From NCBI GenBank assembly GCA_030149295.1, contig JASBRV010000105.1, positions 1-39,121 on the forward strand: DNA of 39,121 nucleotides. Direction: 5' to 3'. The notes beneath the pieces were generated by a model, which searched no databases, had not been told where the DNA came from, and worked only from the letters and a program-made list of their open reading frames with translations. A program made the position numbers and the translations under genes. Positions 10,804 to 36,446 of the stretch are shown here, piece by piece. The DNA is from Bacteriovoracales bacterium (GTDB lineage: Bacteria; Bdellovibrionota; Bacteriovoracia; Bacteriovoracales; Bacteriovoracaceae). Numbering within the stretch: position 1 is the first letter of the stretch; each line of letters begins with the position of its first letter.

Positions 10804-12594
10804 ATGGAAACAGAAGTCAAACTTACCCTATTCAATGATGTCCACCGGCAAATAGCAGAAGCCCTCCATCATGCTATTAATGGCGCCTTCCCTGAGCTTC
10901 AGGAGAAGCCGAACCTCGAAGCACTTGGCTCCTCCCTCAGTAGTGCACCCAATTTTAAAATGGGGCATATTGCCTTTGCCTGTTTTCCCCTAGCAAAAAT
11001 TTGTCGCAAAGGTCCTCCCCAAATTGCCCAAATGCTTTTGGAGCAAAAACCACTTAAAGAATGTCCTGTTATTGAAAAAGCCCAGGCTCAAGGTCCCTAC
11101 CTTAACTTTTTTCTGAGTCTAGAAACTCTTGGAAATATCGTCATTGGAGATATTAATAATGGCGAATACTTTCAACATAAACTGATTGCTGGTGCTGAAA
11201 AATGGATGATTGAATATTCTCAGCCCAATACTCATAAAATTCTCCACGTGGGGCACATGAGAAATTTATGCCTTGGTAATGCCCTGGTTCGTATGTGTCG
11301 TTACGCCGGTGTTGATATGAGTGCTGTGACCTATCCTGGAGATGTGGGCACTCATGTCGCAAAATGTCTGTGGTACCTCAAAAAGCACAATAAAGAAGAA
11401 CCTCCTAAACAAAATAAAGGGGCTTGGTTAGGTGACATGTACACCAAAGCGAATTCTCTTTTAGAGGATCAAAGAGGAACAGAGAATGAGGATCAAAATC
11501 GTGCCGAGTTAACGGCCATCCTCAAAGAACTCCATGACCAAAAAGGTGAGTATTATGACCTTTGGTTAGAAACAAAGAAGTGGTCTGTTGAACTCATGAA
11601 AGAAGCCTATTCTTGGGCCGATGTAGAATTTGATCGTTGGTTTTGGGAATCAGAAGTGGACGCCCCCTCCCTCAATTACGTCAATGAACTCTTTAAAGAG
11701 GGAAAGCTTGTTAAAGATGACGGTGCTGTAGGAATGGATTTAAGTGAGGACAAACTCGGTTTTTGTCTTTTGATTAAAACCGATGGAACGGGTCTTTATG
11801 CCACTAAAGATGTTGAACTTGCACGTAAGAAGTTTGAAGAATATGGGATTAAAAGAAATATCTATATCGTTGATGATCGCCAAGCCTATCACTTTAAGCA
11901 GGTCTTTAAAGTTCTTGAAAAAGTAGGTTTTGAACAAGCAAAAGATTGTTACCACCTCCAATATGCTATGGTCGAACTACCCGATGGGGCCATGAGTAGT
12001 CGCAAGGGAAATATTGTCCCCCTTATGGATCTTGTCAGTGAGATGGAAAAAAGAATTAAAGAGCAATTTCTCAATCGCTACCTTGAAGATCAATCTTGGA
12101 GTGAAGATGAAGTCAATAAGACGGCAACGATGATTGCCAATGGTGCCATCAAGTACGGCATGATCCGAGTGGATAATAATCGTAAAATTACATTTAATAT
12201 GGATGACTGGCTCAAACTAGACGGAGAAACAGGCCCGTACCTTCAATACGTTCATGCTCGTATTGCTAGCCTTTGTGAAAAACTCCATTACAATGATGAC
12301 CTAATTGTGAATTGGGAGTCTCTGACTAAGGATCAAGAAATCGCTCTTATGGTTAAACTTCTCAGCTTCAATGATGTGGTCGCCTCAGGGGTGCAAAAAC
12401 TGCAAACCATGCATCTTTGCGGTTATCTTTATGACCTAGGGAAACTCTTCAATAGCTTCTATGCCGAATGCCCTATCGCTAAAGCAGAAACCGAGGAGCT
12501 TAAGAACACTCGTTTGGCCTTAGCCCATGCAACAGGCATGGTGATGAAGGAAGGATTGGCGTTATTAGGTATTCAAGCCCCTGAAAAGATGTAG
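10804..12594 (+). CDS. argS: arginyl-tRNA synthetase
   Basis: Class Ia synthetase of 596 residues that charges tRNA-Arg in the cytosol. The N-terminal Arg-tRNA-recognition domain (about 1-100, with VIEKAQAQGPYLNFFLS) is followed by the catalytic core. HVGH at 148-151 is the HIGH motif in the context NTHKILHVGHMRNLCLGNALVRMCRYAG. MSSRKGN near residue 397 is the KMSKS-equivalent, which in many ArgS enzymes lacks the first Lys. The anticodon-binding helical domain includes the typical GPYLQYVHARIAS and ends in a short Met-terminated tail. Length is normal for bacterial ArgS. It is transcribed alone, convergent with the giant gene that follows. Confidence 0.95.
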   Translation: METEVKLTLFNDVHRQIAEALHHAINGAFPELQEKPNLEALGSSLSSAPNFKMGHIAFACFPLAKICRKGPPQIAQMLLEQKPLKECPVIEKAQAQGPYLNFFLSLETLGNIVIGDINNGEYFQHKLIAGAEKWMIEYSQPNTHKILHVGHMRNLCLGNALVRMCRYAGVDMSAVTYPGDVGTHVAKCLWYLKKHNKEEPPKQNKGAWLGDMYTKANSLLEDQRGTENEDQNRAELTAILKELHDQKGEYYDLWLETKKWSVELMKEAYSWADVEFDRWFWESEVDAPSLNYVNELFKEGKLVKDDGAVGMDLSEDKLGFCLLIKTDGTGLYATKDVELARKKFEEYGIKRNIYIVDDRQAYHFKQVFKVLEKVGFEQAKDCYHLQYAMVELPDGAMSSRKGNIVPLMDLVSEMEKRIKEQFLNRYLEDQSWSEDEVNKTATMIANGAIKYGMIRVDNNRKITFNMDDWLKLDGETGPYLQYVHARIASLCEKLHYNDDLIVNWESLTKDQEIALMVKLLSFNDVVASGVQKLQTMHLCGYLYDLGKLFNSFYAECPIAKAETEELKNTRLALAHATGMVMKEGLALLGIQAPEKM

Positions 12595-12631: not shown

Positions 12632-12652
12632 GAAAATGACCTAGTCATTTTC
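12632..12652. terminator. perfect 9-base-pair hairpin with a stop codon as its loop
   Basis: GAAAATGAC and GTCATTTTC are perfect complements separated by CTA. The CTA at 12641-12643 is the TAG stop of the giant gene read on the minus strand, so the last codons and the 3' flank form the stem. It lies between convergent argS and the giant gene and may terminate either, but no T-run follows. Confidence 0.5.
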
Positions 12653-15600
12653 CCCCATAGCATCTTTCACAAGATCCGTAATTTCTTCCGTTACCGCTTC
12701 CTCTTGTTCAGCAGTAAGCTCACCACGCAACATTGGCTTTAAAAGCCTTTCAGAAAAAACCTCTACTGCCTTTTTTCCTGAAGGAGTAAAACGTAGGTAA
12801 TTAGGGTCTTTTGTCGGGTCAAAGCGATTACCCCACTGGAAATCCTCATTAACCCTATAACCCATGACATAGGCTCCCACTTTTTTAAAGGGAGACCAAA
12901 AGCCTGTCGTTATCCATTCTCTTTCATCGTTTAATTGCTTTTGTATAATCGGTCCAAAAAGAGTTTCAGCAAAACCGTTCACGGCAGTATCCTGTGCCAG
13001 AACATCCGTGACATTACCCATAAGTTCTTTCGGTACCTCAAGTGTTTTAATTTCTCCCTTGAGAAAAGGCAGAATAAATTCACGTTTGAGATTATCAAGA
13101 GCTTCTTTCCCAGGACCACTACCGAAGAGGCGGTTAATCATGAGTTTAGAGCCGAGAAGCTTAGTTACTGTAGTTGATGCCCCTTCTTCCTCAAGAGCAG
13201 CCTTCGTTTGACTCTCAACCATACCTGCAATCATACTTTCAAGAAGGACATCCATAAGAGGACTATCCGCAAGATGTTCTCCGAGTTCCCCCAAAGTTAC
13301 TTTATCCGTACGCTCTCCAAATTTCTTTTCCATGCTTTTCTTAAACTCCTTGAGAGCATGATTAAGAGCTTCAGAGTCATAATTAGCCACTCCATTAAGG
13401 AGTTCCACAACTTTAGGTTCGAAATCTTTAACTAGGCTTTCAATAGGAGTTGGCTCAGGCGCTCCTTTAGCCCTTTCCTCATCTGTTGGAGGATTTGAAA
13501 CTTCCTCTTTAATCCAATTAAGGATTGGACTATAGTCAATATCAAGACCCCCATCTCCTGCCACATTGGTGAGATGATCAAGAGTTCCCGTCAAAGTAAT
13601 CACAGCTTCCTTGGTCTCTGGGTCTAAGTTTGCCTCTTGGCGTTTCATAAACCCTTCAGTGACTTCATTAAGAGCTCCACCAATTTCATTTTCAAAGGCA
13701 CAGGCAGCAAGAGCAGGGATAAGCCAATCAATGTCTGGCACTCTTTTGGGACTCAGAGATTCTCCATGAAGAAATAATTCTTTATAGAGCTCTTCACTTT
13801 GAAGATTTTTTAAGTTTTCTGGAATTTTATCTCCATGGACATGCTTAATGGCCCGTTCTTCGACGTCCGTCACACAAGCATTCCAATCAGCACTCTTATC
13901 ACTTTCTTTGAGAAGACCTTTGTCTCGAAGATCAATTAAGACATCGCCAACGAAATTTGTGATGGCCAAATTTAAGCAACCATCCAAATGGGCACCATAG
14001 ACTTTGCCATTAATTTCTGAATTCATTTTGTCACTACATGAGTCAAAATGAGACTTTCCGTAAGCAGCTAATTTTTCACGATCCAAATCACTCTCATTTA
14101 CCCATTTAAGAATAAACTCTAATCTCTTTGGCAAAATTTCTCTGGTTGCGATCAAACGAGCATCATTGATACAGCGATCTAACTCAATTTCTGTCACACC
14201 ATGATCCTTTTCTTTCATTCGCTCTTTTAAATCTTTTGTACACAGACTGAGCTGTTCACTCGTTTCTTTCCCAAGTTGTTCTCTTTGGCGAGCTAGATCG
14301 GCAATTTGATCTTTGGTAAAGGACAGAGGAGCAGGTAATTTTTCTTCAATAATATTAACAATGGCCTTCTCAAAAACTCGATCAGTAGCATCAATTTTAA
14401 AAGTAAGGACAAAGTCGTCCATTGCCTTATCTTTCTCTACCCCTTCTTCCATTTGGGAGATCACTTTTAATTTATCCATTCTTTCTTCACTAATGAGCTC
14501 ATTGGCGAGAGCATCACGCTCTTTTTGATCAAGAATATTTCCGATTAAACTGTGATTAACGATATTTTGCTCTAGCTTTTGTCTTAAGAGATACTCAGTG
14601 GTCTTGACTGTTGTATCGATCACACAATGATCAATAGGATTCTTTAATCCTGCTGCTTTAGCGTCCTCTAGACATTGAGAAAGAACTTCACTTCCCTTTT
14701 CCACCAGAAGTGTGGCATCTTCTTCACCGTCAAGAACACCATCTTCCACCAATTTAAGCGCGGTCGCCTCTAAAACAGAGGGGCCTAAGACATTAGTTGC
14801 CGCTAATTCAATGGCATTAATCGCCTTGGCCATTTGCGCCTCATCACCAGAGTCAACAGCTTTAATTAGATTAACCCCTAATTCCCCGTCACCATTTTCA
14901 CCAAAAACTTCCTTTTTTACGAGTTGAACAAGTCTTAGGCTTTCTGCCTTTTCTGTTTCTGTCTCTGGTCTTGTGATTTCAAAAATTTTCTCTTCTAATA
15001 TTCCTTCCAAGACTAGGGGAATGGCCTTAGGAGTAAAGTTTTCCAGTTTCCCCATGGCCTCATCCATAGTCTTTATGTCTTTGAGATCTTTTCCAAGTTC
15101 TGCAATAACCAGCTCAATTACGCGCTCTTTTGTTTTTTCACCCATTTCAACTTGTGTGATCGCTTCCTCAACAAAAGGTGTAAAAAGGTGCTTTTGTACA
15201 TCCGAGTTCTTAAAGAGTTCAGCCGCACAAACATCTTTAAGTTTTTCTTGCTCCTCTAAAATTCCATCAACACTATGATAATCTTTTAATTTATCATCAA
15301 AGCATCTTTTAACACTAAGACCAACGGCCATCTTAGCTTCATTAGATATTTTTATATCTTTATACTGAGGATTCTCTAAAAGAGTTTCTAAGAGCATTTT
15401 TTGAGCGGCATAAAAACTTGCTTCAGAGATAGCCCCTTTGAGACATTTTGCTGTTTGATGTTCCATCTCCTGATCTCTTCTTCGAGAAAGTTCTTTTTTC
15501 TCATCGGGTGTCTTTCCTTCATATTGGAGAAGCCAGGTAGGAAGAGATTCCATCATAAATTCATGTTCTTTTTCAAAACAAGCTGTCGGATTAAATCCTC

Positions 15601-18334
15601 GATTTTCGGTCACATCTTTAAAGATCGCATCGCCCAAAAGATCACGAAGGGTTTGAGCTGCCGCTTCTCCTGTGGCCAAATTTGTAACCACACGATTACA
15701 TTCTAAAGGATCAAAACTAGGAACAATCTTATCCACTTTTGCTTCTTTATTTCCTGTTTGTGCGATAAGCTCTTCTTTTCTCGCGCGATAAATCTCTTGA
15801 TACTTATCAATGGCGATTCTTTGCGTTCTTAAACAACTCTCTAAAGTCCCTTTACTCTTATTGAGCACAATATTTCGAGACTCTTCAGATAACTCCACGT
15901 CATTAAGCTTAGCAGCGATGCTCACTTCTCCCACAGAAAGCGCGACATCTTCCACCAAGATATTCATACAGCTCATAAAATTTTGTTCAAAAATATCAGC
16001 AGCTGCTCCCCCCAGTCTTCTTATATTAAACTCAAAGCCTCTCACTCCATATTTTCCAAGGCCCCGACTGCCAAGACAGCTTCTTACATTTTGTTTGGTC
16101 TTTTGTAGGCGATCTCTTGAATAACTTAACGTTAGTCCTAGTTCGCGGCCAATATCACCCAATTGAGTATCAACAATGGCCTGGGATGTATTATCAACTG
16201 TTACGATAAGTGATTTATAAAGACAGCCTTTAACAATATCCATTCCCAATGCACTATCCTCTCCCCTCTTTATAGGTTCATAGTGTTCTTGGGTGCAAGC
16301 GAGAAATTCTGCTTCCGCCACTTTGGAAAAGTCTCCAAGACCTGCTTGCGAAATTTTGAGCTTTAAAATTTCTTTTGCCACATCAATTGGAGCTTCTTGC
16401 ATAAAAATATTTAGGCACTTTTCGGCCATATCACTATTTCGTGCGTCACTAGCTAGACGGATACAAGCCCTAAAGTCTCTCATCACACTTTCAACAAGCT
16501 CTTCGATGTTTTCACTTTTTTCAGTAGGCATAAGTTCAGCGACTAATCTTTCAAGGGCAAGCTCGCCAAAACGAGAATAGGCTTCTTCCGTAGCAACCGC
16601 AGTAATGCGATTTGAGCTTTGATCAAAATTATTTGTTCTCTTCCCAGTCGCAGTGGCAACCTCTTCAGCAATGACCTCAATATCATGATCAGTAATGAGA
16701 CCATTGAGTAGTGGACTATTGAGGGCTTCTTTAGCCTCCTCCACGATGGTGTCTCTGACCTTTTCGCGACGTCCATTTTTAGAGAAAAAGATTTGAAAGG
16801 CAATATTCGTTAAACCTCCAGGGCCTTCTCTCTCAAAGTTCACATTATTATATTCATTCGATCTTGTGCCATCAAAACGCAATCGTGGACGAACTCCCCC
16901 TACTCCATTTTGGGTAAGGACGAGAGGATAAACAGACTTTTCAAAACTTTGATAATTGAAACGTCCTTCTTTCTTTTCGCCTTTTAAATAAGCTGCTAAT
17001 CGCGCCTCCCCTTTACCTTGAGCATTCATGATGAATTCACTTTCAAGGACCAGTTGGTTTTCCCACTCGCCTGTTGCTTCATTAAAGGCTTGAACCATAA
17101 ATTGCTTTTGACCCCGATCATCTTTTAAATGACGAATCCTCATTTGCTTTTCACGGGCGAGAGCAACGTTATTAAAATTCGCATCAATTAAACGCCCATG
17201 CTTATCAAAGTCGAGGCGTAGAGGATGAAGTTTTCCAAAAAGAGAAAAATTCAACATCATTTGATTCTTTCCTGGCCCTAATTGGGGCGTATTAGGAAGG
17301 CCAGCATCGAGTTGTTCGCGCCACATGTGATCAAGAATAGCGTCAAATTGATCAAGTTGTTGTCCTAAATCTTTATCAACTGGAGTATTTTCTACAAAAG
17401 GCTCAGCACACCCAACATTTGAGTTAAAGATCTCTTCGGTATCGAGACCTATTTGACCAAAATAAGTGAGAGCTCCTTGATAGTCGCCGTCCAAATTCAG
17501 ATCAAATACCTTCTCTGAAATAATCACTTGCTCACCATCATCATTATAACGCAATTTTCTAATCAGAATTTCATTGGAGAGAGGATTGAAAAGAACCTCT
17601 TCAAAAACTCCTGTTTCTGTTTCCTTGAGATGAAGACGGTTAAACTCATTTTGATATTTATTTACAGAAGCCTTTAGTTCTTCAAAAGCATCTTCAGGAA
17701 GTTTAAAGCCATGATTGGCCATATCCTCTTTTAGAGTTTCTATATGGTTATTAAGTTGGCCTATCGTCTTAAAGGGAAGAACCTTAAACTCAACAACATC
17801 GCCTGCTGTATTTTTAATGTCCGTACGCAAACCCGCGGTGAAGGGAAAGCTGTGGTGATCTTCATCATTGACGACTTGGATAAGAAGCTCACCTCTCTTT
17901 TGATTGAGGAAAACTCCGAGGTTGGTATTTTCTTTTTTCCCTACCTGCATAAGTTTATAGCGACTTGGCCCCTTGCGAAGATCATCGATTAATTGTCTGT
18001 ATTGGGAATCGCCTAAAACTTCTTTTGCTCCAGACTGACCGTCGGTTGTTCCCATATCATACGAAGTTGTTCTTAGAGGTGCCCAACCTTGAGGTGCTGG
18101 ATTCCATGGCTCTGCCAAACGATCAACGTTATCTCGATTGAGACTCACAATTTGCGGCTCTTTAGAAAATTCTTTTACAATGACTTTTTGAGTTTTGGTG
18201 TCGAGGTAGACTTCTTTAACTTGGGTTCCCTCTGAATTTTCTATGGTGGCTTTTCGCACAAAGCGTTCTTCGCCGTAGGCATGGTTAACCATACAAAAAA
18301 AGCTAATAAAAATGGTCATGACCACTCTCACCAA
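12641..18334 (-). CDS. giant exported protein of unknown function with ten cysteine pairs
   Basis: 1897 residues, by far the largest gene here. A Sec signal peptide (MTIFISFFCMVNHAYGEE) implies export. Residues about 25-520 are beta-rich with Asn/Asp/Gly turns (for example 361-440). From about 520 the protein is helical and acidic. Between residues 624 and 1545 there are exactly 20 cysteines falling into ten pairs: 624/640, 680/704, 753/789, 834/879, 919/964, 1011/1036, 1221/1237, 1365/1388, 1433/1453 and 1487/1545. The second member usually starts a helix (EKCLNIFM, KGCLYKSL, DGCLNLAI, DRCINDAR). Outside this region the mature chain has only Cys309. This looks like a tandem array of disulfide-pinned helical hairpins. 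The start is TTG, nine bases after AAGGAG. I recognise no family; it could be a periplasmic or surface scaffold. Confidence 0.8.
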   Translation of the reverse strand: MVRVVMTIFISFFCMVNHAYGEERFVRKATIENSEGTQVKEVYLDTKTQKVIVKEFSKEPQIVSLNRDNVDRLAEPWNPAPQGWAPLRTTSYDMGTTDGQSGAKEVLGDSQYRQLIDDLRKGPSRYKLMQVGKKENTNLGVFLNQKRGELLIQVVNDEDHHSFPFTAGLRTDIKNTAGDVVEFKVLPFKTIGQLNNHIETLKEDMANHGFKLPEDAFEELKASVNKYQNEFNRLHLKETETGVFEEVLFNPLSNEILIRKLRYNDDGEQVIISEKVFDLNLDGDYQGALTYFGQIGLDTEEIFNSNVGCAEPFVENTPVDKDLGQQLDQFDAILDHMWREQLDAGLPNTPQLGPGKNQMMLNFSLFGKLHPLRLDFDKHGRLIDANFNNVALAREKQMRIRHLKDDRGQKQFMVQAFNEATGEWENQLVLESEFIMNAQGKGEARLAAYLKGEKKEGRFNYQSFEKSVYPLVLTQNGVGGVRPRLRFDGTRSNEYNNVNFEREGPGGLTNIAFQIFFSKNGRREKVRDTIVEEAKEALNSPLLNGLITDHDIEVIAEEVATATGKRTNNFDQSSNRITAVATEEAYSRFGELALERLVAELMPTEKSENIEELVESVMRDFRACIRLASDARNSDMAEKCLNIFMQEAPIDVAKEILKLKISQAGLGDFSKVAEAEFLACTQEHYEPIKRGEDSALGMDIVKGCLYKSLIVTVDNTSQAIVDTQLGDIGRELGLTLSYSRDRLQKTKQNVRSCLGSRGLGKYGVRGFEFNIRRLGGAAADIFEQNFMSCMNILVEDVALSVGEVSIAAKLNDVELSEESRNIVLNKSKGTLESCLRTQRIAIDKYQEIYRARKEELIAQTGNKEAKVDKIVPSFDPLECNRVVTNLATGEAAAQTLRDLLGDAIFKDVTENRGFNPTACFEKEHEFMMESLPTWLLQYEGKTPDEKKELSRRRDQEMEHQTAKCLKGAISEASFYAAQKMLLETLLENPQYKDIKISNEAKMAVGLSVKRCFDDKLKDYHSVDGILEEQEKLKDVCAAELFKNSDVQKHLFTPFVEEAITQVEMGEKTKERVIELVIAELGKDLKDIKTMDEAMGKLENFTPKAIPLVLEGILEEKIFEITRPETETEKAESLRLVQLVKKEVFGENGDGELGVNLIKAVDSGDEAQMAKAINAIELAATNVLGPSVLEATALKLVEDGVLDGEEDATLLVEKGSEVLSQCLEDAKAAGLKNPIDHCVIDTTVKTTEYLLRQKLEQNIVNHSLIGNILDQKERDALANELISEERMDKLKVISQMEEGVEKDKAMDDFVLTFKIDATDRVFEKAIVNIIEEKLPAPLSFTKDQIADLARQREQLGKETSEQLSLCTKDLKERMKEKDHGVTEIELDRCINDARLIATREILPKRLEFILKWVNESDLDREKLAAYGKSHFDSCSDKMNSEINGKVYGAHLDGCLNLAITNFVGDVLIDLRDKGLLKESDKSADWNACVTDVEERAIKHVHGDKIPENLKNLQSEELYKELFLHGESLSPKRVPDIDWLIPALAACAFENEIGGALNEVTEGFMKRQEANLDPETKEAVITLTGTLDHLTNVAGDGGLDIDYSPILNWIKEEVSNPPTDEERAKGAPEPTPIESLVKDFEPKVVELLNGVANYDSEALNHALKEFKKSMEKKFGERTDKVTLGELGEHLADSPLMDVLLESMIAGMVESQTKAALEEEGASTTVTKLLGSKLMINRLFGSGPGKEALDNLKREFILPFLKGEIKTLEVPKELMGNVTDVLAQDTAVNGFAETLFGPIIQKQLNDEREWITTGFWSPFKKVGAYVMGYRVNEDFQWGNRFDPTKDPNYLRFTPSGKKAVEVFSERLLKPMLRGELTAEQEEAVTEEITDLVKDAMGEND

Positions 18335-18434: not shown

Positions 18435-19328
18435 TTAAAGGGACTTTTTAATAATTTCGATGAGATAAGTGCCCACACTAAAAAAGAGAGCAAGAAAAAC
18501 CATCAAAAGTTTTTGTTTGAGCTCTCCTCTTTGCCAAGGAAACAAACCCCAAATCATCCCCACTGCTAAACCTACACCGTGGGCGATGTTGGCAATATTT
18601 CCGATGGCACCAAAAAGACAAAGAAAATACCAACCAATCATTAAGTAAACATCTCTTTTGGGCAGACGAAATTCGGCGTCTTCATGAAAGCGACCAAAAA
18701 TCCACAGGTAACCTAGAAGCCCATAGACAAGACCACTTAAACCACCAAAGCGCGGGCCAAAGGCAAAATATTGCAAAAGATTAGAGCTTATTGAAACGGC
18801 TAAGACAAAGAGTAAAAAGTGTTTTGAGCCCTTTTGATTTTCAAAGAGTGAGCCTAAGTCCTTAATCCACATACCGTTAAAAAAGATATGAAGGAAACCA
18901 AAATGAAGAAAAATAGGAGTCAAAAGACGCCAAAACTCGAAGGCCTTTATATCCGAGAGAAAAGGCTCTCCTGGTGTATTGATAAAAAAGAGAGCGAGAA
19001 CTTTTTGAAAATACTCAGGTGTAAAGCTAGTAACAAAAACAGCTCCAGAAATCCCTAATAAAACCGTGGTCAACTGACCCATAGGAATGGAGCGCATTTT
19101 CTCCCACTCCGGATCAACTTCAGGAGGTGGACCAGGCAGCCCCATTCTTACCCGAAAGAAATCAGCCGCAGGTTCGGCCTGGGCGGGATCATTGACATAG
19201 AGGCGATAGATCACTCCTCGCTCAGTTCGAACTTCGTTAATTTCTACCTGAAAACCTCGCTCTTTAGCCTCACCTACCAGCTTTAATGCCTGTCTTTGGT
19301 CAAAGAGCTCACCAACGATATATTCCAT
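18435..19328 (-). CDS. glpG: rhomboid-family intramembrane serine protease (GlpG-like)
   Basis: 297 residues. The first about 80 form a soluble cytoplasmic domain of the GlpG type (ELFDQRQALKLVGEAKERGFQVEI, then a Pro-rich linker). Six hydrophobic segments follow. Catalytic and structural residues are in place: HIFFNGMW with His147 and Asn151; GGLSGLVYG with nucleophile Ser198; NIANIAHGVGLAVG with His250 completing the dyad. It cleaves membrane-spanning substrates within the bilayer; the substrate is unknown. Start: the ATG lacks any Shine-Dalgarno sequence, and a TATAGT sits about ten bases before it, so the mRNA may be nearly leaderless. It is divergent from the SUF operon and 100 bases upstream of the giant gene on the same strand. 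Confidence 0.9.
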   Translation of the reverse strand: MEYIVGELFDQRQALKLVGEAKERGFQVEINEVRTERGVIYRLYVNDPAQAEPAADFFRVRMGLPGPPPEVDPEWEKMRSIPMGQLTTVLLGISGAVFVTSFTPEYFQKVLALFFINTPGEPFLSDIKAFEFWRLLTPIFLHFGFLHIFFNGMWIKDLGSLFENQKGSKHFLLFVLAVSISSNLLQYFAFGPRFGGLSGLVYGLLGYLWIFGRFHEDAEFRLPKRDVYLMIGWYFLCLFGAIGNIANIAHGVGLAVGMIWGLFPWQRGELKQKLLMVFLALFFSVGTYLIEIIKKSL

Positions 19329-25207: not shown

Positions 25208-25738
25208 TTAAATTTCATACTTTCGAAGCTTTTTCCTCATCAACTCATTTTCATTTGGACTAATAGATAAGTTAATCCAATCTCGCCACTCTTTGCCAAA
25301 AGGTCCAGTTTCAAAATTAGAAAATGTATAATCCTCACAATTCTCACAAAGGCCTGCCCGTACAGGATTTTGATAAATATAGCGAACGACATTGAAATAA
25401 TAAGCTTCACTACTAATGAGTGACCAACGATAAGGAGCTCCAAAAATTCGATTGATTCGGTCCGCATGCCTAGCGATACTTTTTCCAAGGGCCTGATTAA
25501 AAAATTGCATAAACTCATCAATATTTGCCCGTGGAGTATAAAGACACATGTGATAGTGATTTCTCATCAAAATATATGCTTCCACTTTTACACCAAATCT
25601 CTTCTCACCTTCTATAAGGTGTTTCAAAAAGTACTCCCATACATCCTCTATGGGAATATAAAACCATTCTTTATTATTCGAACGGCTGGTCACATGGTAA
25701 GGCAACTCATCACTTCTAATTAATTTTCTTCTCGGCAT
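25208..25738 (-). CDS. REP-associated tyrosine transposase (Y1/IS200-like, RAYT)
   Basis: 176 residues of the HUH/Y1 superfamily. The HUH motif is His61-Tyr-His63 in ILMRNHYHMCLY. The catalytic tyrosine is probably Tyr120 in VVRYIYQNPVRAGL, the typical RAYT tail. LPYHVTSRSNNKEWF near the N-terminus is also characteristic. The protein nicks single-stranded REP hairpins. The ATG at 25738 is preceded by AAGGAG; a frame extension to 25765 has no ribosome site. The repeats either side suggest it recognises the GTGCGTGATACC family. There are no terminal inverted repeats of a classical insertion sequence. Confidence 0.9.
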   Translation of the reverse strand: MPRRKLIRSDELPYHVTSRSNNKEWFYIPIEDVWEYFLKHLIEGEKRFGVKVEAYILMRNHYHMCLYTPRANIDEFMQFFNQALGKSIARHADRINRIFGAPYRWSLISSEAYYFNVVRYIYQNPVRAGLCENCEDYTFSNFETGPFGKEWRDWINLSISPNENELMRKKLRKYEI

Positions 25739-25830
25739 TTTTTCTCCTTTTGAGAATAAATACAAAGTCTGCTCACAATCAGGTTTACTAAGCCATGAAA
25801 ATTAATAAGAATGTCTACGCTTCGCGCGCA

Positions 25831-31077: not shown

Positions 31078-32478
31078 ATGCGCTTCACTGGAATTTTAAT
31101 ATTTTTTCTTTTGACGTTACCCTCCTTTGCCTCCGACCAAGGCGCGGCTAAGGCCATTATCGTGCGTGGTGATGTCAAGGCCATGATCGATGGAAAAGTC
31201 GTACCGGTTAAAAGAGGTGAATGGTTACCCGAAGGTGCGCAGGTACGAACCAAAGCTAAGAGTTTTACGAAACTTCTTTTTAAAGATAAGTCCACTATGA
31301 ATGTGGGGCCTGAGTCTCAGATGAAAATCGATGCCTTTCCGGAAAAAGAAGCAGGAATTATCACCTTAGTGAAAGGAACCATTAGATCAAAAGTCACAAA
31401 GAACTATATGAAAATGGATGATAAAGAGAAATCCAAACTCTTTATCAAAACCAAAACTGCGGCCATGGGGGTTAGAGGTACAGACTTTCAGGTAGCCTTT
31501 AATCCGGTAAACCTCAACACGTCATTGATTACCTTTGAAGGTGCTGTTGCCATGGCAAAAATTGCAGAGAGCATGGGTGGAGGATTCAATCAGGGAAATC
31601 TCGAGGCTGCCGTTTCAGGGCCAAATGCCGTGATGGTAAAAAGAGGTCAGTTCTCTGCCGCTAATGGTAATGCCGCAAAAGTTACGATCCCTGTTAAAAT
31701 TTCTCCAGTTCAATTAGAAACACTCGAAAGTAATGAGGGTATGGGAACAGATATTCCAGAAGGTGACGCCACAAGTGTTGCACCCCCAAAGAAAAAATTT
31801 AAAAGTATCGTTCCTCCGGGAATGGATGCCAAAGATGTGGCGAATGACTTATCTACAGCAGAGGGTGTCATAGGAGACACTATGGGTGCAGAGGTCATGG
31901 CGGAAGTGACTGTTGCCGTGGAAACTGAGCAAGCCGTCGATACTGCTCCCCCAGAAGGTGGTGTTATTAATGGTCAAGTGGCTCCTAAGGCCGGAGGTTA
32001 TATTGACCTCGCTACATCTCAATACATTCCACCCCCAGAAGGGTCAGTATTTGACGCTTCTGCTGGAGTTTACACTATGGATGCCACTGCAGGTTATGTT
32101 GATCCAGTGACTGGAAGTTTCACCAACGATAATTACACTCTTACTGAAAGTGGTGAATGGGTAGAAAAACCAAAGACCGATGATGGTGGTCGAGAAATTG
32201 CGAGTGTCGATGGCGGACCTGCTGATGGTGGTACTGCCGAGGGTGATAGCTCCGCTACTGGAGATGCCCCACCACCGCCACCAGAAATTCAAAATATCGA
32301 TGCGGACTTTGAAATAGCAACAACAGAGTTTGACACGACAATTGATGTGAACAATTACGACATGACGACTCTAGAAACAACGACGAGTGATCCTGATGCT
32401 CTTCCTCCTATTATCAACCAAACCATTCAAACTGGGGGAACGACCACTAAAGTTAACTTTGATGTAGTAACTGAGTAA
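31078..32478 (+). CDS. FecR-domain exported protein
   Basis: 466 residues with a signal peptide (FTGILIFFLLTLPSFAS). Residues about 22-165 are a FecR domain: AIIVRGDVKAMIDGKVVPVKRGEWLPEGAQVRTKAKSFTKLLFKDKSTMNVGPESQMKI, then KTKTAAMGVRGTDFQVAF. The rest is acidic and low in complexity, rich in Gly, Pro, Thr and Asp. It has a degenerate GY-(I/V)-D-x-x-(T/S) unit seen at GGYIDLATSQY, AGVYTMD and AGYVDPVTGSF (about residues 308-352). FecR domains in this setting are thought to act as periplasmic sensors or assembly partners; here the downstream barrel and cyclase suggest signalling. It is not the classical iron-dicitrate FecR, as no sigma factor or TonB receptor is adjacent. Confidence 0.85.
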   Translation: MRFTGILIFFLLTLPSFASDQGAAKAIIVRGDVKAMIDGKVVPVKRGEWLPEGAQVRTKAKSFTKLLFKDKSTMNVGPESQMKIDAFPEKEAGIITLVKGTIRSKVTKNYMKMDDKEKSKLFIKTKTAAMGVRGTDFQVAFNPVNLNTSLITFEGAVAMAKIAESMGGGFNQGNLEAAVSGPNAVMVKRGQFSAANGNAAKVTIPVKISPVQLETLESNEGMGTDIPEGDATSVAPPKKKFKSIVPPGMDAKDVANDLSTAEGVIGDTMGAEVMAEVTVAVETEQAVDTAPPEGGVINGQVAPKAGGYIDLATSQYIPPPEGSVFDASAGVYTMDATAGYVDPVTGSFTNDNYTLTESGEWVEKPKTDDGGREIASVDGGPADGGTAEGDSSATGDAPPPPPEIQNIDADFEIATTEFDTTIDVNNYDMTTLETTTSDPDALPPIINQTIQTGGTTTKVNFDVVTE

Positions 32479-34217: not shown

Positions 34218-36446
34218 ATGTGGTCCAAAATTTTAAAGTACCTAGGTGTTTTTCTCATCCTAGGCTTCTCATCATTAAGTATTCTCATTTCCATTGGTTT
34301 TAGAGAAGAATCCTATGCCACCAAACAGCAGTGGGCCTTTACTTCTCTTTTTGAGTCACGTTTCTACGACTACAGAGAAAACCTGATTCGTGACAAATCA
34401 AAGATAGATAAGAGGATTACTCTAGTTGCTATTGATGATGCGTCCATTAAGGCCGTAGGTCGCTGGCCCTTTCCCCGTGAAAACTATACAAAACTGATGA
34501 AGAAGCTTAAAAACTTCGGCGCTAAAGTGATTGCTTACGACGTTTTCTTTTCAGAGGCCTCTCTTACTTGCCCAGGCTCAAATACAGATGAGGAGTTCAC
34601 CAATGCCATGGCGGATTTCCAAAGTGTACCAGGAAATCGCATCATTCTTCCCTACTCGCTATCTGCCTACCCTGAAGAAGTTTATGAAACCATGCCTGAC
34701 GTCCTTTACAACTTCGTGATGGATGCCAAGCAAAGTGAGGGCCTTAACACTCGCCAAATGTATGTCGAAAGAAGAGTATTTCCCATTCCTCAAATTTCAG
34801 AAAAGGACGTGGCTTTAGCGCACATTCAAGTCGAAGCCGACAAAGATGGTCTCCTTCGTCATTATCCCCTCATTGGAAATGTGGAAACTCTTTACCTACC
34901 TGGTTTTTCTCTTGCGACCTATGAAGCTTATACCGGCGATAGCCCTACTCTTGAGATGCTCAACTTAGGAGAGAATATTCTCAAGTTTCAAACAGGCGAT
35001 CTCTATTTAAATAACTTAGGGGAAACAAAGGTACGCTGGCTTGGAGGAGAAGAGCATTTTCCCACTTTTAGTTTTTGGGACGTGATGACTGCACCAGACG
35101 ATGATCCCGTTCTTAAAGAAGCCTTTCAAGGCAATGTCGTCTTTATCGGATCAACTGCTTATGGGGCTCATGATCTGCGCCACACTCCTGTTGATCCTCT
35201 TATGCCAGGAGTTTTCTTTCACATGAATATGCTTCATATGCTTCTTGAAGGAAAATTTTTTAAAGCACCAAGTGAATCAGTTATGTGGTCTTGGTATCTT
35301 CTTTTAGGGGGAACCATTCTTATGGTCCTTATCCAGTTCTTTGGCAATGCTTTAGTTGACGTTTTAGGTGTCGTCGCTATTTCTGGAGGGCTTATTTTTG
35401 CCGATCTACAACACTTCACTCCCGAAGGATATGAGATTAAACTCTTCTTTATCCTCTTCTCAGTGATAGGTTGTTATTCTTGGTCCACCTTTCTCCACTT
35501 TTATTTGGCTAATAAAGATAAGGCCTTTCTTAAAAGTGCTTTTGGAAACTACATCTCCCCTGAACTTATTGATGAGATGTATAAAAGCGGAGAGCCACCA
35601 AAACTTGGAGGTGACTCTGGAGTGAGAACCGCTTACTTTACAGATATCCAAAGCTTTTCAACTTTTTCGGAAAAACTTTCCGCCACACAACTAGTTGAAC
35701 TTCTCAATGAGTACCTCACGGCCATGACGGATATCCTTCTTGAAGAAAAAGGAACTCTCGATAAGTACGAAGGTGATGCTATCATCGCCTTCTTTGGTGC
35801 TCCGATGCCTCTTGAAGATCATGCACGCCGCGCTTGCTTGGTTGCCCATCAAATGCAAACGAAGCTCTCTGAACTGCGCCTCAAGTGGCAAAGTGAAGGC
35901 GATAAATGGCCAAAAATTGTTCACGATATGCGCATGAGAATCGGGATTAACTCAGGTGAAATCGTCACAGGCAATATGGGCTCTGCCTCGCGAATGAACT
36001 ATACCATGATGGGTGATTCAGTGAACCTCGCTGCTCGTCTTGAGGAATCGGCTAAGCAATACGGAATTTTTACCCAAGTTTCTAAAGAGACCATGGAACT
36101 TGCGGGTGACGACTTCTTGTGGCGTGAGCTTGATACTATCAAGGTAGTCGGAAAGTCGGTTCCCGTCACCTCCTTTGACCTTCTTGGTTTAAAAAGTACA
36201 GCACCAGAGTTTCTTCATAACCTCTCAGAGAAGTTTGCCCTTGGGCTTTCTCTTTATAAGTCACAGCGCTTTACTGAGGCGCTTACCCTTTTTAAGGAAA
36301 CATTAGAACTTGAATATGAGCGCTTTCCAGATCTCAAAGGGGTGAAAACAAACCCTAGCGAAATTTATATCGAACGCTGTGAGGAATATATCAAAATGCC
36401 TCCTCCACCAGATTGGGATGGCGTCTTCACCCTTACTTCAAAATAA
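34218..36446 (+). CDS. CHASE2-domain class III adenylate cyclase
   Basis: 742 residues. One N-terminal helix (about 9-26) is followed by a periplasmic CHASE2 sensor (about 30-345; AIDDASIKAVGRWPFPRENYTKL, HIQVEADKDGLLRHYPL, FIGSTAYGAHDLRHTPVDPLMPGVFFHMN). Three transmembrane helices (about 355-430) lead to the cyclase domain. Metal ligands are Asp476 (FTDIQSF) and Asp520 (YEGDAIIAFFG). Lys516 and Asp600 (MMGDSVNLAARLEE) are the adenine-selecting pair, so ATP rather than GTP is the expected substrate. Asn603 and Arg607 complete the site. A C-terminal TPR-like helix pair ends the protein. All catalytic residues are present, so it should be active and make cAMP in response to an envelope signal, probably delivered by the two upstream genes. 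It starts 14 bases after the TPR gene. Confidence 0.93.
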   Translation: MWSKILKYLGVFLILGFSSLSILISIGFREESYATKQQWAFTSLFESRFYDYRENLIRDKSKIDKRITLVAIDDASIKAVGRWPFPRENYTKLMKKLKNFGAKVIAYDVFFSEASLTCPGSNTDEEFTNAMADFQSVPGNRIILPYSLSAYPEEVYETMPDVLYNFVMDAKQSEGLNTRQMYVERRVFPIPQISEKDVALAHIQVEADKDGLLRHYPLIGNVETLYLPGFSLATYEAYTGDSPTLEMLNLGENILKFQTGDLYLNNLGETKVRWLGGEEHFPTFSFWDVMTAPDDDPVLKEAFQGNVVFIGSTAYGAHDLRHTPVDPLMPGVFFHMNMLHMLLEGKFFKAPSESVMWSWYLLLGGTILMVLIQFFGNALVDVLGVVAISGGLIFADLQHFTPEGYEIKLFFILFSVIGCYSWSTFLHFYLANKDKAFLKSAFGNYISPELIDEMYKSGEPPKLGGDSGVRTAYFTDIQSFSTFSEKLSATQLVELLNEYLTAMTDILLEEKGTLDKYEGDAIIAFFGAPMPLEDHARRACLVAHQMQTKLSELRLKWQSEGDKWPKIVHDMRMRIGINSGEIVTGNMGSASRMNYTMMGDSVNLAARLEESAKQYGIFTQVSKETMELAGDDFLWRELDTIKVVGKSVPVTSFDLLGLKSTAPEFLHNLSEKFALGLSLYKSQRFTEALTLFKETLELEYERFPDLKGVKTNPSEIYIERCEEYIKMPPPPDWDGVFTLTSK

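What the first reader, a model, noticed from the sequence alone, without database searches (positions are those of the whole stretch)
12641..18334. Giant exported protein with ten regularly arranged cysteine pairs
Twenty cysteines, all between residues 624 and 1545, fall into ten pairs spaced 16-58 residues apart (624/640, 680/704, 753/789, 834/879, 919/964, 1011/1036, 1221/1237, 1365/1388, 1433/1453, 1487/1545). The rest of the mature 1897-residue chain has one. The second Cys is mostly followed by a hydrophobic helix (CLNIFM, CLYKSL, CLNLAI, CINDAR). This looks like a repeat of helical hairpins pinned by disulfides, so diverged that only the cysteines show it. I know of no described family with this plan. 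A periplasmic scaffold, attachment or prey-interaction role is speculation.
Basis: partly seen in the sequence, partly recalled or inferred. Interest (0 to 1): 0.82.

Follow-up and report, generated by a model that had tools for sequence, protein, structure and literature searches.

The report
Disulfide-stapled giant helical-repeat exported protein
Some bacteria of a predatory lineage carry a very large exported protein that looks like a chain of helical hairpins, each apparently pinned by its own pair of cysteines kept almost unchanged through evolution, which points to an undescribed kind of stiff protein scaffold outside the cytoplasm.

Summary
The 1897-residue minus-strand protein has 22 Cys: one in the signal peptide, Cys309, and the 20 listed. 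In 18 aligned giants (the window protein and 17 orthologs 20-57% identical to it) all 20 are invariant; 21 of 43 invariant columns are Cys. A shared C-terminal module leads to shorter relatives with a regular array of up to 12 pairs, one per ~64 residues. A repeat model from these hits the giants 38 times at 5 bits or more, each time touching a listed pair, though only five of the ten pairs; 255 other proteins give 3 hits. In 38 divergent relatives listed pairs show 10 single-loss cells of 380, shifted pairing 90 of 342, but most losses are deletions. AlphaFold2 gives a beta-rich N-terminus and then helices; no bond or distance was measured. No Pfam, NCBIfam or PDB family fits. Helicobacter Hcp proteins already show disulfide-pinned helical repeats. 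Best reading: a new Bdellovibrionota superfamily of exported stapled alpha-solenoids, probably scaffolds; function not shown.

The parts
12641..18334 (-). giant exported protein, 1897 aa
   Evidence: ORF and translation; aligned with 17 orthologs
18272..18334 (-). signal peptide, about residues 1-21 (cleavage site inferred)
   Evidence: hydrophobic N-terminus; N-termini of the orthologs listed (L020 and L068 are cut by contig ends)
16871..18271 (-). N-terminal beta-rich region, residues 22-488, strands in groups with helical inserts
   Evidence: AF2 model mb01b1f860468, block pLDDT about 29-84 here
17408..17410 (-). Cys309, the single conserved cysteine outside the pairs
   Evidence: Cys in 17 of 17 aligned giants that reach it
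13637..16516 (-). helical repeat array with ten cysteine pairs, residues 607-1566
   Evidence: AF2 models; conservation; repeat model hits
16415..16465 (-). pair 1, Cys624/Cys640
16223..16297 (-). pair 2, Cys680/Cys704
15968..16078 (-). pair 3, Cys753/Cys789
   Evidence: both substituted in L030
15698..15835 (-). pair 4, Cys834/Cys879
15443..15580 (-). pair 5, Cys919/Cys964
15227..15304 (-). pair 6, Cys1011/Cys1036
14675..15226 (-). Cys-free helical stretch, residues 1037-1220, length of about two unstapled units (inference)
   Evidence: spacing; profile similarity S6b-S7b 96% probability
14624..14674 (-). pair 7, Cys1221/Cys1237
14243..14623 (-). Cys-free helical stretch, residues 1238-1364, length of about one unstapled unit (inference)
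   Evidence: spacing; S3-S7b 85%
14171..14242 (-). pair 8, Cys1365/Cys1388
13976..14038 (-). pair 9, Cys1433/Cys1453
   Evidence: both substituted in L077
13700..13876 (-). pair 10, Cys1487/Cys1545
12644..13102 (-). C-terminal module (D...GGF.E ... DF.W ... G), residues 1745-1897, found in 57 of 69 superfamily members tested
   Evidence: alignment A7
18435..19328 (-). rhomboid protease gene just upstream, same strand
   Evidence: Pfam PF01694; NCBIfam GlpG model below its cut-off; neighbour in 17 of 18 giant loci with that flank; also present where the giant is absent
10804..12594 (+). argS, convergent neighbour marking the fixed locus
   Evidence: Pfam; synteny

Best explanation
The protein is exported by a signal peptide and, by inference, oxidised outside the cytoplasm by a DsbA/DsbB system. 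Its middle is a long alpha-solenoid of degenerate ~64-residue helical units (about 13 by length, an inference), ten of which carry one cysteine in one helix and one in the next long helix, joined as a disulfide that closes a loop. A beta-rich region precedes the solenoid and a conserved module ends it. It belongs to an undescribed Bdellovibrionota superfamily whose regular members keep up to 12 such units. Shown: signal-peptide-like start, cysteine invariance, homology of the C-terminal module, repeat-model hits on five of the ten pairs, presence of DsbA and DsbB family genes. Strongly inferred: the pairing. Inferred only: that it is a stiff, protease-resistant scaffold in the periplasm or on the surface, with the beta-rich end for binding, the C-terminal module for assembly or anchoring, and Cys309 for a bond to another chain.
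For: Cys invariance in 18 of 18 giants. Length between paired cysteines varies in several pairs (680/704 17-39, 834/879 16-50, 919/964 28-65, 1365/1388 11-35, 1487/1545 26-72), while from one pair to the next it is nearly fixed in seven of nine cases (40; 49-54; 45-56; 38-42; 47-48; 45; 34-37), as for stapled loops on a rigid stem. Co-loss, with both-substituted cases; in L030 the span from 704 to 834 keeps its length of 130 while both cysteines between are gone. Regular relatives with alternating gaps of 10-22 and 39-57 (6 of 7 full-length ones; L159 is less regular), and members of one genus differing by two whole units (1178 aa, 25 Cys; 1034 aa, 21 Cys). Repeat model: 38 hits at 5 bits or more in the 18 giants, 34 over both cysteines of a listed pair and 4 over one; 3 hits in 255 other proteins (one, in L119, lies in a locus fetched as a distant match) and none in 18 shuffled giants. 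Helices in AF2. DsbA and DsbB families in the same genome. No CXXC.
Against: No disulfide was measured and no model coordinates were available. AF2 used 4 sequences; mean pLDDT 71.5 and 63.7, pTM 0.43 and 0.36, and the last 116 residues of the second model are below 50. In the models short helices lie between the partners of pairs 2, 3 and 5 (at least in one model) and a 15-residue helix in pair 10. With cysteines masked the repeat model barely sees the window protein (best 0.2 bits), so the signal is mostly cysteines. Five of ten pairs were never hit at 5 bits. Pairs 1, 3 and 6 have a fixed internal length. Most pair losses are deletions, and in group D the shifted pairing does as well. Nothing tests scaffolding. 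Three genomes of the own genus show no long form, so it is dispensable.
Confidence: 0.6

Rival explanations
1. It is a predation factor: a surface or injected adhesin/effector that touches prey, with staples protecting it from proteases.
For: Present in Halobacteriovorax marinus SJ, identified by its 3,435,933-base chromosome (PMC5760749 Table 2, passage), a predator; the long form was found only in the window's family among 368 phylum genomes; the related B protein lies beside a MnuA-like nuclease with a signal-peptide-like start.
Against: By my reading only 20 of 129 family genomes have the long form; three of seven of the own genus (G002, G004, G006) show none; no expression data were found.
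Confidence: 0.2
2. It is a periplasmic chaperone, inhibitor or maturation platform for exported enzymes; the rhomboid next door may cut its partners.
For: Rhomboid gene next to it in 17 of 18 loci, and a nuclease-like gene beside B in 19 of 21 loci.
Against: The rhomboid stays at the locus where the giant is missing, and the giant of G026 (L025) has no rhomboid beside it.
Confidence: 0.1
3. The cysteines are real but pair otherwise: the second Cys of one pair with the first Cys of the next.
For: Those distances are the more constant ones; both partners would also lie on neighbouring helices in the models; equal fit in group D.
Against: 90 single-loss cells of 342 against 10 of 380 for the listed pairs; in the regular relatives the short 10-22 gaps fit closed loops.
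Confidence: 0.05
4. The pairs are reversible redox or metal sites.
For: Conserved thiols in pairs.
Against: No CXXC; DsbA and DsbB families are present for an exported protein; loop lengths vary.
Confidence: 0.04

Closest known systems
Helicobacter cysteine-rich proteins (HcpB, HcpC; Sel1-like repeats)
   Same: Alpha/alpha solenoid repeats with conserved disulfides in the repeats (PMC4746701 passages).
   Different: No Sel1 or TPR model among the families listed for 17 giants (capped list of 25) or for 9 further members; unit about 64 residues with 9-21 or more residues between the cysteines; far longer; beta-rich N-terminus and own C-terminal module.
GLG1-type cysteine-rich repeat (PF00839), recalled
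   Same: Secreted helical repeats with several cysteines (recalled).
   Different: Not among the Pfam families listed; two, not four, cysteines per unit (four is recalled).
Nucleoporin and APC1 type beta-propeller plus alpha-solenoid proteins
   Different: TM-score about 0.08, so no real structural match; eukaryotic and intracellular (recalled).

Membership tests
Sel1-like repeat / Hcp family | Sel1 repeat profile match | tested here: not met
   hmmscan: no Sel1 for the window protein, none in the 25 families listed for 17 giants or for 9 further members
Sel1-like repeat / Hcp family | disulfide within the alpha/alpha repeats | tested here: inconclusive
   cysteine pattern and co-loss fit; no bond measured
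Sel1-like repeat / Hcp family | structural match to Hcp in the PDB | tested here: inconclusive
   Foldseek: no Hcp in the 50 rows shown of 655 and of 78; models of modest quality
PF00839 cysteine-rich repeat | Pfam profile match | tested here: not met
   (capped list)
Twin CX9C (CHCH) | two CX9C motifs in one hairpin (recalled) | tested here: not met
   smallest Cys spacing in the window protein is 16
New Bdellovibrionota stapled-solenoid superfamily (this report) | C-terminal module A7 | tested here: met
   window residues 1745-1897; the window protein is one of the 20 rows of the model, so its own match is by construction
New Bdellovibrionota stapled-solenoid superfamily (this report) | unit found by a repeat model made from other members | tested here: met
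   window hits at 611-661 (12.1 bits, pair 1) and 783-811 (5.9 bits, one cysteine of pair 3); its other hits are below 5 bits

The most novel reading that the evidence does not exclude
A new class of extracytoplasmic architecture: a solenoid with a disulfide rail along one edge, cross-linked to further copies through Cys309, that builds a covalent protein framework in the envelope of Bacteriovoracaceae or inside the prey.
Probability: 0.1. Interest if true: 0.85.

Novelty: new variant of a known kind. Interest (0 to 1): 0.62.

Why it matters
No Pfam, NCBIfam or PDB family was found for these proteins of up to about 2000 residues. They give an unusually clean case in which cysteine pairs, and little else, outlast sequence divergence, and a defined target for work on what this predatory lineage places outside its cytoplasm. 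Disulfide mapping and a deletion in a laboratory strain would make structure and role directly testable.

Tried and rejected
Rhomboid as dedicated partner: next to the giant in 17 of 18 loci but also kept where the giant is missing; downgraded. Repeat detection inside the giant alone by profile comparison: 13 of 66 segment pairs exceeded 20% probability, 0 of 28 control pairs and 2 of 96 mixed pairs, one of the two because the segments overlap in sequence; with cysteines masked 8 of 66, 0 of 28 and 2 of 96; suggestive only, so relatives were used. Weak family hits set aside: DUF445 in one relative, E 4e-4, 20.8 bits under a cut-off of 33.8; Fel d I-B in one giant, E 0.001. The 1434-residue 22-Cys ORF beside the rhomboid in G029 looks like a glutamate synthase large subunit (recalled motifs), not a relative. 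The single-protein scan of named genomes found nothing; plasmids gave no match. A tree of the C-terminal module clusters the A, B and E types, but A is not one clean clade and L025 is a long branch; rows L161 and L162, first labelled E, fell with C and B. Literature searches showed no paper on the family in the listings seen; opened were PMC5760749 (passages), PMC11656739 (term search with 0 hits, then outline with abstract) and PMC4746701 (passages).

Full report
What is there. The finding's coordinates hold one open reading frame on the minus strand, 1897 codons. It starts at TTG with AAGGAG nine bases upstream and a hydrophobic N-terminus that reads as a signal peptide. Pfam, NCBIfam and PDB sequence searches gave nothing of weight for the single protein, nor did Pfam for 17 giants or the PDB for their profile.

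Orthologs. The first search found matches in 10 of 59 genomes, the own genome included. A profile search found some match in 43 of 129 genomes of the family and, with a broader profile, 40 of 129; by my reading of the rows, 20 of the 129, in 8 genera, have the long form, three of them as fragments at contig ends (G109, G111, G138). Three loci found in the named collection are titled Bacteriovoracaceae (two) or Bacteriovoracia (one), all metagenome-assembled. G008 is Halobacteriovorax marinus SJ by its chromosome length of 3,435,933 bases (PMC5760749 Table 2, passage). The gene lies at one fixed place, between argS and a rhomboid gene and near the suf genes. In two species of the own genus argS and the rhomboid gene stand side by side without it: 18 bases apart in G006, about 570 in G004. 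The shared place in 8 genera favours loss over gain; this is an inference.

Conservation. Eighteen giants were aligned: the window protein and 17 orthologs, 20-57% identical to it, one of them (L068) cut by its contig end. All 20 cysteines are Cys in 18 of 18 and Cys309 in the 17 that reach it; 21 of the 43 invariant columns (at most one gap allowed) are Cys, and the few other cysteines lie in or next to the signal peptide. The distance within a pair varies up to about threefold in several pairs, while the distance from one pair to the next mostly changes little. Exceptions: pairs 1, 3 and 6 have a fixed internal distance, and the gap 1237-1365 ranges from 117 to 169.

Wider family. Besides the long form (A) there are a B form (21 loci aligned, 1147-1430 aa; one in the window's own genome, L111), C and D forms, and regular E forms. 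A, B, E and part of C share a C-terminal module; it was not found in 12 of 69 members tested, 7 C and 5 D. A search with that module found 48 of 368 genomes of the phylum, four of them outside the family; a search with the E form found 52 of 368, six outside the family, many of these through the module alone. Six of seven full-length E members have gaps that alternate 10-22 and 39-57 over up to 12 pairs plus one odd cysteine; L159 is less regular. Within genus g15 members differ by two whole units. A model of 67 such units, with no sequence of the giants in it, hit the 18 giants 38 times at 5 bits or more, 34 times over both cysteines of a listed pair and 4 times over one; only pairs 1, 3, 7, 8 and 9 were hit. 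The B set (21) gave 8 hits and the D set (5) none. Of 255 other proteins three gave a hit, one of them in L119, a locus fetched as a distant match; shuffled giants gave none. The 9 proteins of loci L098 and L099 were taken out of that control because those loci hold true E members. With cysteines masked the window protein scores nearly nothing, so the cysteines carry most of the signal.

Are they pairs? In 57 members of 1000 aa or more (five shorter fragments of group 0 dropped) each position was tabulated. Leaving out two contig-cut rows and the 17 full giants, 38 members give 290 cells with both cysteines, 80 with none and 10 with one for the listed pairing, against 229, 23 and 90 for the shifted pairing; of 5000 random pairings the lowest had 30 single cells and the mean 129. 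In group D the two pairings tie, 5 single cells each. The caution is that most lost pairs are gaps, so both cysteines go together by deletion. Double substitutions are seen in L030, L077 and group D (five rows, perhaps one event); L091 lost one of two by substitution; the other nine single cells stand opposite gaps. Related rows are not independent events.

Structure. AF2 with four sequences gives a beta-rich N-terminal part and then helices almost only (residues 22-1200, mean pLDDT 71.5; residues 698-1897, mean 63.7). Each listed pair lies on neighbouring long helices; short helices of 5-6 residues come between in pairs 2, 3 and 5 in at least one model, and a 15-residue helix in pair 10. Cys834 and Cys964 lie more than 20 residues away from the connecting loop. 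Foldseek found no convincing match.

How it probably works. The genome has DsbA and DsbB family genes. I infer that the exported chain folds into a long solenoid whose loops are stapled one by one, which would make a stiff and protease-resistant body; stretches 1037-1220 and 1238-1364 have the length of about two and one unstapled units. Which partner it holds is not known. The fixed rhomboid neighbour is weak evidence, since the rhomboid gene stays without the giant. The B form lies beside a ~322-residue protein (21 of 21 loci) and a ~537-residue protein (19 of 21 loci); two of the latter were scanned and match the MnuA nuclease model below its cut-off, and the nine N-termini printed for each look like signal peptides. 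This hints at a place in exported equipment.

Known or new. Conserved disulfides in alpha/alpha repeats are known from Helicobacter HcpB and HcpC (PMC4746701, passages), so the idea is not new; the family, its unit and its spread were not found described in the searches named above.

Noticed in passing
L111 2176-8909 (own genome, contig C21) and 20 further B loci: The B paralog (1286 aa in the own genome) lies beside a ~322-residue protein (21 of 21 loci) and a ~537-residue MnuA-nuclease-like protein (19 of 21 loci; two scanned, below cut-off); some B members have an extra close cysteine pair near the C-terminus.
   Followed up: partly
L130 7289-10099 and L131 1-2804: Sites in two species of the same genus where the giant is missing between argS and the rhomboid gene.
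   Followed up: yes
L154, L156, L163, L098, L099: In these five loci the gene for the regular stapled-repeat protein is followed within 0-6 bases by a gene of one cluster (a response-regulator receiver domain in the one scanned, L154) and then by an isocitrate dehydrogenase-like gene (scanned in L154).
   Followed up: partly
window 25208-25765: Y1 (IS200-like) transposase domain protein on the minus strand.
   Followed up: no
window 34218-36446: CHASE2 plus adenylate/guanylate cyclase protein; upstream at 31078-32478 a FecR-domain protein.
   Followed up: no
L027, L075, L076, L161: C-type members with 29-32 cysteines, including extra ones in the N-terminal part, which may be added stapled units.
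   Followed up: no
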